Part shown: piece after piece, positions 18,096 to 29,677 of the stretch | How positions within the stretch are numbered: position 1 is the first letter of the stretch | Layout of the letters: every line of letters begins with the position of its first letter | NCBI GenBank assembly: GCA_033220425.1 | Contig: CM065651.1 | Location: 4,402,001-4,466,000, forward strand | Source: Lepraria neglecta | Taxonomy: Eukaryota > Ascomycota > Lecanoromycetes > Lecanorales > Stereocaulaceae | Reading direction: 5' to 3' | Length of the DNA stretch: 64,000 nt | The notes under the pieces: generated by a model | Databases searched by the model: none | What the model was told of the DNA's origin: nothing | Seen by the model: the letters and a program-made list of their open reading frames with translations, nothing else | Made by a program: the position numbers and the translations under genes

Positions 18096-18159
18096 CTTGA
18101 GGACTATATCTCAGCCACTGCCTCGATGTTTCTTGATCGGCTTTAATGAAAGGAATACA

Positions 18160-18164
18160 GTACC
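18160..18164. repeat. Target site duplication GTACC, left copy
   Basis: Identical five bases flank the two LTR ends (other copy 29673-29677). Read on the minus strand it is GGTAC: the last base of NLR exon 2 plus the first four bases of the intron. Confidence 0.9.
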
Positions 18165-18356
18165 TATTGTATACTATTTGCCATTTTCCTTTACCATTTT
18201 CCTTTATCACCATTTCTTTGTCAACATTCTAGCGTCTTCTACTATTTAACACTCCATCATATATATTAGGAGCCTTATTCCATAGATTCTGGCTCCTCAG
18301 GCTGTTCACATTCATAGATCTCATTGATACATTACAACGCTTACACCATAGCGACA
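18165..18356 (+). repeat. Left LTR of copia element
   Basis: 192 bases, TATTGTATAC...GCGACA. It differs from the right LTR at three positions by eye, each TA here versus TG on the right. Confidence 0.95.
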
Positions 18357-18370
18357 GTTATAAGCCCGGA
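18357..18370 (+). other. Putative primer binding site of copia element
   Basis: GTTATAAGCCCGG directly after the LTR resembles the GGTTATGGGCCC-type site of Drosophila copia, which pairs with an internal piece of initiator tRNA-Met. The TA for TG difference fits RIP. This assignment is inference. Confidence 0.4.
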
Positions 18371-21300
18371 TTACCCTAATTAGTTAGCTTAAACGGCGCT
18401 AAACCCGATCAAGCATACTAACCGCTGCACCCGATTCTTCAATATCTTCAACAAGCCTTAAACTTATCCAATTTCCTTTATCGCGGTAGAAGCCATCAAT
18501 ATAAGCTTATAAGCTACCGTTACTATATCGATCACCCTTACAGGTATATTAGTATAGTATAACTAGATCTCTATCATTAGATCCAGTGCAAAACAATCAG
18601 ACATCTAGGATCTTATAGACCCATCGCTCGATTAAGAGCCCCTAATCACTACTCCTACTCTTCCAAGACGAATAGGGCTACTACTAGGCCTTACAGAAAT
18701 CGAGCGCAATAATTAATATACTAATTAGTTACTAGAGTTTAATATTCGATAAAAGGATTATAGGGAGAAGAAGGATATACTAATCTATATATTATCATAC
18801 ATACAAAAATCGATCTTACCTAAGTATATCACGTATATTCTCGATAAGGATACTCTATAGCAAGCTCTTCGATCCCTCTAATAGGCTATTAAATCTTATT
18901 CAAGTATCCGAGCTCTTAAGATTAATTATCAGTATAAAGTACTTTGTATAGGCCTACCAAAGGGTCAGAATATCAAGTAGTAGCTTAGTAGATAGGAAAC
19001 AGTCTATATAGAAGCTAAAGTAACGAGGCATTCGGATATTGAAACAGGTTTAATCCTTAACTATTTTATTAACAGCCTTAAGTAGATAGATCCTACCTAG
19101 ACCGCAATATCACTTTATAACCTATAGCTTAGACATTCCCGAAATAAGAAAACACCTACCTTTATAGAAGTCCTTAATCTCTTTCAACAAATTAGTACAG
19201 ATAATCTACTATCTAGTAACTCCGTATCCTTATATACGGTAATACTATAAGGTTAACCTCCGGTATCTATATCTACAAACCCTTAAAAATCAAAGGAACC
19301 GCCCCAGAAATATACTTATAGGATAGTATATTAGTACAGTAATTACTATTACCTTATTGAATTACTACGTCCTAATAGCTAGAAACCTAATACTAAGATT
19401 ATCTAGAAAGTAGAAGAAGCCCTGAAGGATTTAAAAGTTAAAGCTAATATTGAAAAGGCTAATAAGTAGAAGCCTCTAACTGAACCTTAGGATCCAAAAA
19501 CCTTTATAATAAAGTATTATAGCGATCCTACAGCGGTCCTTAATATAAAGGACTATAATATTATAAACTCCTAGATACTAGATTCCGGTTCGAATATCTA
19601 TATCTATAATAATCTCTATCGCTTTAAAATAACTTACTCTACTATATCCGATAACTATCTTGTTTCCGGATTAATAATATATCCTATTACTGCCTATAGG
19701 ACGGTTAATATTACTATTACGTTACTAACTGGTAGGATAGAAAATATTTCACTTAAATAAGTAGCCCTGATCCTAGGATTCTTTACTAACTTAGTCTTAT
19801 TTAGTAAGGTAAAGGCTATAAATATTTATTAGGATACTATAAAGGATACTCTATATATAGTCGAAAAGGGAAGATAGGATTACTTCTACTAGCTTAAACT
19901 ATATAATAGGCATTAGATTATTAAATATAATGACCTACTATTAGCAAAACAAATCTTTACTGCTTTAAATACTATATCTTAGCAAAAAACTTTCGAAGCT
20001 TCGCCAAACTATCTATACCAAATAATAGGCTATACAGGAGCTGATACTATTTCTAAGCTACCAACTACAGCTGAAGGACTAAAGCTTACTTCGCTATATA
20101 CTCAAGACGAGTTTAAAACCTGCGAAACCTATTGCCTATCGAAAGTATATCGGATTATTTTAAGAAGAAGTAATAATAAAGTCCTATCAACACGTCTACT
20201 TTATTAAGTAGCCTATAATCTTATTCCTATAGAGCAAGGCTACAATAGGTATACTTAGATCAGTCATTTTGTCTACTAGAATACCTACTTCTATTAGTTA
20301 TAGATATATCGTAACAAGTATAAGGCTACTAATATAGTCGCCTATATAGTCAATATCGTAGAAAATTAGTACCAACAGCGGATAACTTTCCTTTATACTA
20401 ATAGTAAGAAGTCCTTAGGACAAGCCTTCGAAGACCTACTTACTAGGTATAGTATCTAATTAGAGCGTACTACTCTATATACCCCTGCCCAAAACGGAAA
20501 ATCCGAGCGCTCTAGGGGGGTGATTATTCAGAAAGCTAGATATATAAGGATTAGTACTAACTTACTATATAATCTATAGCCGGAAACAATATCAGTAGTA
20601 GTATATATCCTTAACCGCACCCTAATATCTAGGACGGGAATAACACCGTTCGAAGCCCTTTACTACTTAAAGCCGATACTCTTATATATAAAGATTTATG
20701 GCTGTAGAGCTTACCCTCTTATTTATAATATTCTAAAGCTATAGAAGCTAGAGCCTCGAGCTTACATTGGGTATCTAGTAGGGTACAGCTCCAGGAATAT
20801 CTATCGCATTTGGATTCCTAGTAAGAAGCAAGTGATCCGAATCCGCGATGTTACCTTCGATAAGAATACTCACTACAAGCTATCTAATATTGATACTAGA
20901 TAACTAGTACAGGAGCAAGAACTGCTATAAGCCATACAAATCTTGCAAGAAATCCCTGAAGCTCTACTGGCCGATAATCAAGATGAATAGGAGCTAGAGA
21001 TTCCTATTCCTAGCAATAGCAATACTACGCCAATCCCACCTCCCAAGATAACAACCAATGAACACCAATCATACATATCACCGCCGCCATCAGAACTGGT
21101 CGATTCTAATGAATCTACATCCTTATCGGCATCCTTATCAGGAATACTACTAGTAGGTAACGGAGATAGTAACTAGGAATATCGACTAATAGGAGCTCCC
21201 GCTCCCCGCTATAACGATATATCCGCAGATATAAATAAGGATTTCATCCTTCCTTCCAGAACCAGGAACCGTCGACAAGCTCATACGGTAGCCATCAACA

Positions 21301-21509
21301 ATCTATATAATCTTTCAGGATATCACGCTGCCTTCGCTACTAATCTAGTATCTAAAGATTACCTCTATCGTAATAAACTCCTAGATAAGCCGAAGAATTA
21401 GAAGCAAATACTGAAACATCCGTATATACACCAATTTGTTCAAGTAGCAAATTAGGAGTTTGACTATCTGAAATCTAGGGGCACCTTTCAACTTATAAAC
21501 CGAGCTACT
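18371..21509 (+). pseudogene. Copia Gag-protease-integrase, RIP-inactivated, interrupted
   Basis: Gag-like sequence runs to about 19450. A retroviral-type protease motif DSGSN lies at about 19580. The integrase core follows, with YTPAQNGKSERS at about 20474-20510 and then VVYILNRTLISRTGITPFEAL, both typical of copia integrases. The frame ends at the Ty3/gypsy target site CTACT (21505-21509). There are many TAG/TAA stops throughout. Plus-strand TG is strikingly rare compared with CA. Confidence 0.85.
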
Positions 21510-27634: not shown

Positions 27635-28000
27635 TGTTATAACCTACGTCTGGTTGTTTACCTAATAGTGCGATAACCGACGTAGGTAGTGTCTTATACT
27701 TCTGTAGGAGAGGAGTTACTCAGGTAGAATGGCAGTCTTCGTATATGTAGGTAACCAATACGTTCTATATTGATAACTAGTAAAGTATAGTGCAAGGAGT
27801 ACTAGGAAGATTAACCAAGTTGAACACGCTATTTCAAACAGTAGGCAAGGCCCCGTATATGTAGATATAAGAAATCCTGCCAAGTCCTCCATGAGCGTTA
27901 TGAGCGCTGGCGCTCGTTGCGCTCATCGCTCCAGCTGCTAGTCCTGTCTGTAGTACCTTTGTCCTACAGGACAGTCCTGTTAGAACTATCGGTTCTAACA
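27635..28000 (-). repeat. 5' LTR of the chromovirus (right, shorter copy)
   Basis: 366 bases. It has a single AGCGCTGGCGCTCG block where the left LTR has a duplicated one. It carries more TA for CA/TG changes in its first 150 bases than the left copy. Confidence 0.92.
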
Positions 28001-28005
28001 CTACT

Positions 28006-29450
28006 ATCAAGTCAAACATTCTGCTACTAATATAGGTTTTCAAATATAAATTTAATAACGCCGGCTTCCTTATTAAATATAAGGCCCGACTATATATCCG
28101 CGGCGATCTATAGAAGATAGAGCAGGATACTACTATAGCTACTCTAGCTATCTAAGTATTCCGAGCTCTTATAGCTATTACCGCAACCTTCAAGCTCAAG
28201 GTAAAATAATATGATATAGTTAATATATTTATCAATAGTGCTATAAATAAGGAAGTCTATATCAACTATCTAGAAGGAATAAAGCCACTAACCTATACTA
28301 TTAACCTATATTTCCTTCTGCTTAGAGCTCTATATAGCCTCAAGTAATCTCTACTACTATAGCTCCAAGAAGTCATATCAATATTACTCAATCTAGGCCT
28401 CTATCTAGTACTAGGAGTCGACTATCTTTTCACTAACTAATAGCTTATCCTCTTCTTCTATATAGACGATTTTATACTACTTTATTATTCCTAGGATAAG
28501 AAGAAGTTCGTCTAATTTAAGGTAGTACTCCTTACCAAATATAAGATTCGGAGCTTAGGTGATCTTAACTAGTTCCTAGGTATTCGGATCATTCGAAGCG
28601 ACGATAAGCTCTATCTATATCAAGACTCGTATATAGAAAAGCTGGTAGAACGATACTATATCCCAACAAGTAGGCTAAGTCCTAGAACACTACTCCTTAT
28701 AGATTAACTGGTAGAATATAGAGATACTGCGACAAAAGCACAAATCTATACCTACTAACAGTATATTAGATCACTTACATTCGCGGTAACAACCACGAGG
28801 CCAGATATCGTATTCGCTATAGCTAAGCTAGCGTAGTTCCTCATCAATCTATTACCGATATATTTAACTACAGCTAACAGGCTTCTCGTATATCTTCATT
28901 ATACAAAAACGCTGGCCATTAAGTTTTCAAAATCAAAGATTAACCCTATATTCCTCTTAAGCATCGATATAGCTTTCGCCGATAATCAGAAAACTCGGAA
29001 GAGCTTATTCGGCTACCTTATCTAGCTCTATAGCGGACCTATAGATTGGAAAGCTTCAAAATAGGCTACCGTTACTATATCGAGTACTAAGGCGGAGCTA
29101 CTGGCATTATCCGAAACAGCTAGGCAGACGCTTTAGTAGAAACGATTTTTCGCTAGTATTAAATTTGATACTTAATAATAACTCGTTATATATTACAATA
29201 ATAAGCAAACTCTAGGACTAATATAATCTAAAACTCCAAGGCTTTCAACGCGTCTGCGGCATATAGACGTCCATAGTTACTGGCTTAGGCAGGAAATCCA
29301 GGAAAAACGGGTCACAGCCTTATAGATTCCAACGGCCGATATACCAGTAGATGGCCTTACCAAACCTTTACTAATTCAAAAACACCAAAACTTTATCAAA
29401 CTCCTTAATATGGCCGATATTTCAACCCTTATTATATGATTTTTACAGCC
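28006..29450 (+). pseudogene. Copia reverse transcriptase-RNase H, RIP-inactivated
   Basis: Resumes the copia frame after the nested element: KYKARLYIRGDL, then YIDDFILL with the YxDD RT motif near 28456, LGIRIIRSDDKLYLYQ, RPDIVFAIAKLA, and the RNase H block SSTKAELLALSETARQ near 29083-29130. Stops occur at expected Gln and Trp codons. It synthesised cDNA in the original element and is not functional now. Confidence 0.85.
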
Positions 29451-29480
29451 TGATCGCAATAGCGCTCAAGCTAGGGGGTG

Positions 29481-29672
29481 TATTGTATACTATTTGCCAT
29501 TTTCCTTTGCCATTTTCCTTTATCACCATTTCTTTGTCAACATTCTAGCGTCTTCTACTATTTGACACTCCATCATATATATTAGGAGCCTTATTCCATA
29601 GATTCTGGCTCCTCAGGCTGTTCACATTCATAGATCTCATTGATACATTGCAACGCTTACACCATAGCGACA
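29481..29672 (+). repeat. Right LTR of copia element
   Basis: 192 bases, nearly identical to 18165-18356, preceded by a G-rich polypurine-like tract. Confidence 0.95.
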
Positions 29673-29677
29673 GTACC
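29673..29677. repeat. Target site duplication GTACC, right copy
   Basis: Partner of 18160-18164. It joins NLR exon 2 directly and recreates the splice donor next to the LTR end. Confidence 0.9.

What the first reader, a model, noticed from the sequence alone, without database searches (positions are those of the whole stretch)
18096..29677. Retrotransposon inserted at a splice donor and kept it intact, making an 11.6-kb candidate intron
The GTACC target duplication is, on the gene strand, the last base of NLR exon 2 plus the first four intron bases (CAG|GTAC). After insertion the bases following GTAC come from the LTR end (TGTCGC). Before insertion they were TGTATT, so the donor GTACTGT is unchanged. 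The acceptor CTCAAG at 18096-18099 is also present and in phase (LLQ|TGLNYIDV). The ancestral intron would be 68 bases and the present one 11,581, extreme for a fungus. The insertion alone need not have killed the gene.
Basis: seen in the sequence. Interest (0 to 1): 0.75.

Follow-up and report, generated by a model that had tools for sequence, protein, structure and literature searches.

The report
Jumping genes inside a dead gene's intron
In a lichen fungus, two nested jumping genes sit inside a short, conserved intron of an immune-receptor-like gene and by luck left its splice signals readable, but the gene is broken elsewhere, so the giant intron is probably only nominal.

Summary
An LTR element (18165-29672) lies between copies of a 5-bp target duplication, GTACC, that overlaps the donor of intron 2 of a minus-strand NLR gene. 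Donor CAG|GTACTGT is unchanged and acceptor CTCAAG stays in phase: 11,581 bp now, 68 bp without the insert. Relatives show the empty site: P0023 and P0025 read from LLQ straight into the predicted intron codons, and the annotated Lepraria finkii protein joins LLQ|TGLNY. Four of five paralogues read by eye in the same genome are interrupted here.

Corrections. The insert is two nested elements: Ty1/copia (about 5.0 kb, antisense) holding Ty3/gypsy (6,491 bp, sense). Donor targeting is unsupported: of 23 insertions with an exact duplication, only this one has GTAC. The NLR has an in-frame stop and five frame changes against an uninterrupted, about 95%-identical relative: a pseudogene, so a working 11.6-kb intron is unlikely (about 4%).

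By-product: the assembly is Lepraria neglecta, called asexual in a paper's title, yet mutation after nesting is almost all RIP-type (19 of 20 inner-LTR differences). Recent sex, or RIP without sex, becomes testable.

The parts
30047..30147 (-). NLR exon 1 (coding part from a proposed ATG)
   Evidence: proposed from reading frame and phase; inference
30008..30046 (-). NLR intron 1 (39 bp, GTAAGC...CAG)
   Evidence: phase fits exon 2; inference
29677..30007 (-). NLR exon 2, first part of DUF7708; carries an in-frame stop at 29860-29862
   Evidence: 16 of 16 relatives have a sense residue there
18096..29676 (-). Candidate intron 2 as it now stands, 11,581 bp
29673..29677 (.). Target duplication GTACC, right copy (last exon-2 base plus GTAC of the donor on the gene strand)
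18160..18164 (.). Target duplication GTACC, left copy; second copy of the donor GTACTGT at 18157-18163
18165..29672 (+). Outer LTR retrotransposon, Ty1/copia type, about 5,012 bp without the inner element; antisense to the NLR
   Evidence: LTR pair, RVT_2 match, two family members of 5,029 and 5,030 bp with their own 5-bp duplications
18165..18356 (+). Outer left LTR (192 bp)
29481..29672 (+). Outer right LTR (192 bp)
28036..28656 (+). Reverse transcriptase remnant of the outer element (PF07727), 10 stops inside
   Evidence: G000:C6:4430036-4430656
21510..28000 (-). Inner LTR retrotransposon, Ty3/gypsy type, 6,491 bp, same orientation as the NLR
   Evidence: LTRs 21510-21916 and 27635-28000; duplication CTACT at 21505-21509 and 28001-28005; outer sequence on its two sides is contiguous, but for 3 bases at the seam, in family copies L020 and L023. 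Orientation rests on one domain.
22620..22829 (-). Integrase C-terminal SH3_Tf2-1 domain remnant of the inner element
   Evidence: E 6.1e-11
17897..18095 (-). NLR exon 3, second part of DUF7708
12212..17894 (-). Rest of the NLR: NACHT (NPHP3_N), winged-helix, TPR; five frame changes near 16150, 14893, 14625, 14193 and 13850

Best explanation
Two nested LTR retrotransposons lie in a short, conserved intron of an NLR gene of Lepraria neglecta that is now a pseudogene. SHOWN: a Ty1/copia element entered antisense at the intron's 5' end; its 5-bp target duplication covers the last exon base and the first four intron bases, and its inverted end TGT happens to equal the next intron bases, so the donor GTACTGT survives and the acceptor lies untouched on the other side. 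A Ty3/gypsy element then entered the first one, taking the would-be intron from 68 to about 5,085 to 11,581 bp. Differences in both elements are mostly C to T at CpA or its complement (RIP type). SHOWN: the gene also has an in-frame stop and five frame changes. INFERRED: transcripts, if any, end or mis-splice inside the insert, and the retained donor is coincidence, not selection or targeting. The order of gene decay and insertion is not resolved.
For: Duplications, LTRs and donor/acceptor sequence. Empty site in relatives: of 16 exon-2 homologues, 11 cover the junction in frame; 10 read V after LLQ (a GT follows the exon, intron read through), 1 (Lepraria finkii, annotated) is joined LLQ|TGLNY; P0023 ends VLYSFH as predicted and P0025 reads VLYSFHLKPIKKHQGSG; P0029 reaches the junction in a shifted frame and 4 do not reach it. 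DUF7708 matches in three other loci split near profile position 41; L048-L051 interrupted there, L052 not. Nesting. Pseudogene: six matched segments in changing frames against P0001; stop position sense-coded in 16 of 16. Targeting unsupported: 23 of 30 loci have an exact duplication and 1 of the 23, the window, has GTAC.
Against: No RNA data were available, so absence of splicing is inferred. Relatives are known as predicted proteins, not DNA, and most come from unnamed assemblies; shared contigs rest on equal contig lengths. Frame changes could in part be sequencing errors, though RPB2-type matches lie in open frames of 940, 414 and 1,241 aa and two copia matches in frames of 1,459 and 1,469 aa in the same assembly. 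Paralogue intron positions were read by eye from three-frame translations.
Confidence: 0.87

Rival explanations
1. The locus is transcribed through and an 11.6-kb intron is really spliced, so the receptor (or a shortened form) is still made.
For: Donor and acceptor sequence and phase intact; the other 5' introns of the NLR also look intact on my reading.
Against: In-frame stop plus five frame changes; sense-oriented gypsy element inside; many competing splice-like and AATAAA motifs (no shuffle control); short introns are the rule in Ascomycota (PMC11649378, passages).
Confidence: 0.04
2. A sub-reading of the best explanation: the insertion killed a working gene by ending or diverting its transcript, and stop and frame changes piled up afterwards.
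For: Sense-oriented inner LTR element; the lesions are absent from the close relative P0001.
Against: Outer LTRs differ from each other at 0 non-RIP positions of 192, inner LTRs at 1 of 366 aligned, so little neutral time seems to have passed for six lesions; this tilts mildly to decay starting before insertion but does not settle it.
Confidence: 0.35
3. The copia integrase prefers splice-donor-like GTAC sites, so retention of the donor is a family habit.
For: The window duplication contains GTAC.
Against: 22 other insertions with exact 5-bp duplications, out of 29 other loci examined, show no GTAC; the remaining 7 loci gave no exact duplication and were not counted.
Confidence: 0.02
4. The stop and frame changes are assembly errors and the gene is intact.
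For: The assembly could not be checked against reads; G000 is held without reads.
Against: Matched segments of 95-567 residues lie between the frame changes, five of six free of stops, the sixth with one stop in its tail; long frames elsewhere are open; the exon-2 stop is reached without any frame change.
Confidence: 0.07

Closest known systems
LTR retrotransposon insertions within introns, nested LTR elements
   Same: Target duplication, LTR pair, second element inside the first; Copia and Gypsy pieces have been found in recently gained fungal introns (PMC8476143, passages)
   Different: Here the target duplication itself overlaps the donor and leaves it unchanged, and the host gene is broken by other lesions
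Fungal NLR with DUF7708 N-terminus, NACHT, winged helix and TPR
   Same: Domain order by Pfam; relatives in lichen fungi
   Different: This copy is a pseudogene
Repeat-induced point mutation (RIP) of fungal transposons
   Same: C to T at CpA and the complement dominate in both elements
   Different: Seen after a nested insertion in a species called asexual in a paper title (reference list of PMC11353741)

Membership tests
Ty1/copia LTR retrotransposon (outer) | LTR pair flanked by a 5-bp target duplication | tested here: met
Ty1/copia LTR retrotransposon (outer) | copia-type reverse transcriptase (RVT_2) | tested here: met
   E 1.0e-14 at 28036-28656, with 10 stops
Ty1/copia LTR retrotransposon (outer) | integrase before reverse transcriptase | not tested
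   no integrase search was run on the outer element
Ty3/gypsy LTR retrotransposon (inner) | LTR pair and target duplication | tested here: met
Ty3/gypsy LTR retrotransposon (inner) | gypsy-type integrase C-terminus downstream of reverse transcriptase | tested here: inconclusive
   SH3_Tf2-1 found near the 3' LTR in 1 of 8 pieces scanned, no Pfam match in the other 7; no reverse transcriptase search was run on the inner element
Spliceosomal intron | GT...AG ends joining exons in phase | tested here: met
   the DUF7708 match runs across the join
Spliceosomal intron | position conserved in relatives | tested here: met
   one of five paralogues read lacks it
Spliceosomal intron | removed from a transcript in its present 11.6-kb form | not testable with these tools
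   no RNA data
Fungal NLR | N-terminal domain, NACHT, winged helix, repeats | tested here: met
Fungal NLR | open reading frame | tested here: not met
RIP | excess of CpA to TpA changes in repeats | tested here: met
   501 of 570 internal differences to L020; 8 of 8 LTR positions against 15 family LTRs, three of which vary in the family; 19 of 20 inner LTR differences; null fractions 7-28%
RIP | RIP-type cytosine methyltransferase in the genome | tested here: inconclusive
   DNA_methylase domain matches at four places, not assigned to RID or DIM-2

The most novel reading that the evidence does not exclude
The nested insert is a clock for sex in a lichen fungus thought to be asexual: both elements entered after this lineage split from relatives that lack them, yet they then gained almost only RIP-type mutations. 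If RIP needs a sexual cycle, Lepraria neglecta or its immediate ancestors had sex after the insertions; otherwise RIP ran without sex.
Probability: 0.4. Interest if true: 0.6.

Novelty: new member of a known kind. Interest (0 to 1): 0.36.

Why it matters
As a giant fungal intron it is probably nominal: retained splice signals in a dead gene. It is still a clean, well-resolved example of how an LTR element can enter a donor without changing it, because LTRs start TG and end CA. The lasting value is the RIP record in a lineage-specific nested insertion of a supposedly asexual lichen, which makes the presence of recent sex testable by comparing isolates.

Tried and rejected
Donor-targeting integrase: not supported, 1 of 23 exact duplications has GTAC. 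LTR divergence as a clock: rejected, the three differences between the outer LTRs are all RIP-type. Empty-site DNA: exact patterns in viral contigs and genome contigs gave 0 matches; both answers warn that records of the window's own or a very near genome may be left out, and neither collection is meant for fungi. Close paralogue of the NLR in the same genome: a DNA search with the 3' part found only itself; the protein query gave 9 matches, 2 at the locus itself and 7 distant (26-33% identity). A paper on this locus: judging from listings only, none in the ten searches; the L. neglecta genome paper was seen only as a reference-list entry. The MAT alpha-box search gave nothing, its control also nothing, so it is uninformative. 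Five of the ten paralogue loci fetched (L053-L057) were not read. For one search, 15 of the 17 non-window LTRs were used; L034 (193 bp) and the left LTR of L033 were left out. Against a general RIP reading: pieces of L019, L021 and L028 compared with L020 show few RIP-type differences or about as many other ones.
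Full report
WHAT WAS CLAIMED AND WHAT IS THERE. The target duplication GTACC stands at 18160-18164 and 29673-29677; between the copies lies an LTR element whose 192-bp ends (18165-18356, 29481-29672) are 189 of 192 identical. On the gene strand exon 2 ends ...CTTCAG|GTACTGTCGC, and the far side reads GGTACTGTATTCC... to CTCAAG|ACGGGG. The intron runs 18096-29676, 11,581 bp; without the insert it would be 68 bp.

THE EMPTY SITE. A DNA search of the genome with the NLR's 3' part finds only itself, so no close paralogue serves as empty site. 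I predicted the reading frame of an empty allele (LLQ VLYSFH, stop) and searched for it. P0023 ends VLYSFH exactly; P0025 reads VLYSFHLKPIKKHQGSG. P0029 reaches the junction in a shifted frame and P0032-P0035 do not reach it. On my reading none of the 11 runs into the LTR. P0025 and P0037, a 95% relative of the window's gene at 46791-48188, both list a contig of 204,109 bases, which points to the same locus in a relative; P0023 and P0001 likewise both list 723,561. The intron is old: DUF7708 matches in three other loci of the genome split near profile position 41, and of five paralogues that I read by eye (L048-L052 of ten fetched), four are interrupted there and one is not. One of these, L048, also seems to use an AAG acceptor, which eases doubt about the window's CTCAAG (my reading).

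THE INSERT IS TWO ELEMENTS. A repeat pair (21510-21916, 27635-28000) with duplication CTACT marks a second LTR element of 6,491 bp inside the first. Outer sequence on both sides of it is contiguous, but for 3 bases at the seam, in family copies L020 and L023, which span 5,030 and 5,029 bp; the window's outer element without the inner one and its duplication is 5,012 bp. The outer element carries a copia reverse transcriptase remnant on +, the inner a Tf2-1-type integrase end on -. So the outer is antisense and the inner, judged by that one domain, sense to the NLR. The intron would have grown from 68 to 5,085 to 11,581 bp.

THE GENE IS BROKEN. Exon 2 has an in-frame stop at 29860-29862 where 16 of 16 relatives have a sense residue. 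Against P0001, a 1,711-residue uninterrupted relative (95% identity; segments 83-95%), the window matches in six segments in changing frames, that is five frame changes. Assembly error is a weaker reading: RPB2-type matches lie in open frames of 940, 414 and 1,241 aa and two copia matches in frames of 1,459 and 1,469 aa.

MECHANISM. Shown: insertion, retained signals, nesting, mutation, pseudogene. Inferred: no useful splicing across 11.6 kb. The sense strand of the insert holds 12 GTANGT, 32 branch-plus-YAG and 12 AATAAA motifs (no shuffle control). The target duplication also leaves a second donor at 18157-18163 next to the old intron, so a transcript starting in the LTR could splice the original 68-bp intron; this is untested. 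A table of inferred ancestral gene structures has 121 for Ascomycota in what I take to be the mean intron length column (PMC11649378, passages, header not shown); another study says fungi do not reach extremes such as mean intron lengths above 1 kb (PMC8476143, passages).

AGE AND RIP. The window's outer LTRs depart from the majority letter of 15 family LTRs at 8 of 192 positions, all C to T at CpA or its complement; 5 are shared by both LTRs and 3 are in the left one only; at 3 of the 8 the family itself varies. Over 4,620 internal bases, 501 of 570 differences to L020 are of that type on the window side, 7 on the L020 side and 62 of other kinds. The inner LTRs differ at 20 of 366 aligned positions, 19 RIP-type. 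Random substitution would give 7-28%. So LTR divergence is no clock here, non-RIP change between LTRs is nearly nil, and RIP acted after the inner insertion, because the two LTRs of an element are copied from one template (established knowledge). The NLR itself shows no RIP bias. L020 and L023 differ at 19 of 4,643 bases, 17 RIP-type; other copies vary, some (L033, L022, L027) rich in RIP-type changes, some (L019, L021, L028) not.

ORGANISM. P0036, named as Lepraria neglecta, is 100% identical over 98% of the query to a window gene, and its contig length, 4,759,350, equals that of the window's contig C6. A genome paper calls the species asexual in its title; I saw only that title, in the reference list of PMC11353741. 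[quoted passage not shown] RIP in apparently asexual fungi is read there as probably ancestral, or as past or hidden sex (PMC7882544, passages), so the published default speaks against my bolder reading. One search for Lepraria together with repeat-induced point mutation returned one paper, on Endocarpon, where Lepraria occurs only in the reference list. Caveat: the relatives without the insert are closer than L. finkii but unnamed, so that they are Lepraria is inference.

VERDICT. Observation confirmed and extended; interpretation partly supported. A well-resolved ordinary event with one neat coincidence, in a dead gene, plus a side result on RIP worth following.

Noticed in passing
window 18165-29672: Heavy RIP-type mutation after a nested, lineage-specific insertion in Lepraria neglecta, a species called asexual in a paper title; suggests recent sex or RIP without sex.
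   Followed up: partly
L020, L023 (G000:C8:3780200-3785800, G000:C1:4042800-4048400): Two nearly identical full-length copies of the outer family, 99.6% alike with 17 of 19 differences RIP-type; heavily and lightly mutated copies coexist in the genome.
   Followed up: partly
window 46791-48188, minus strand: Gene whose L. neglecta protein (P0036) carries a HET (heterokaryon incompatibility) domain by precomputed Pfam, about 17 kb from the NLR; allorecognition-type genes may cluster here.
   Followed up: no
window 5771-6877, plus strand: Ankyrin-repeat open reading frame in the same region.
   Followed up: no
window 18157-18163, minus strand: The target duplication leaves a second copy of the donor beside the original 68-bp intron, so an LTR-started transcript could still splice it.
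   Followed up: no
G000:C1:4579567, C5:384310, C4:1123940, C3:3036865: Four places with DNA methyltransferase domains, candidates for RIP and methylation enzymes; not assigned.
   Followed up: no
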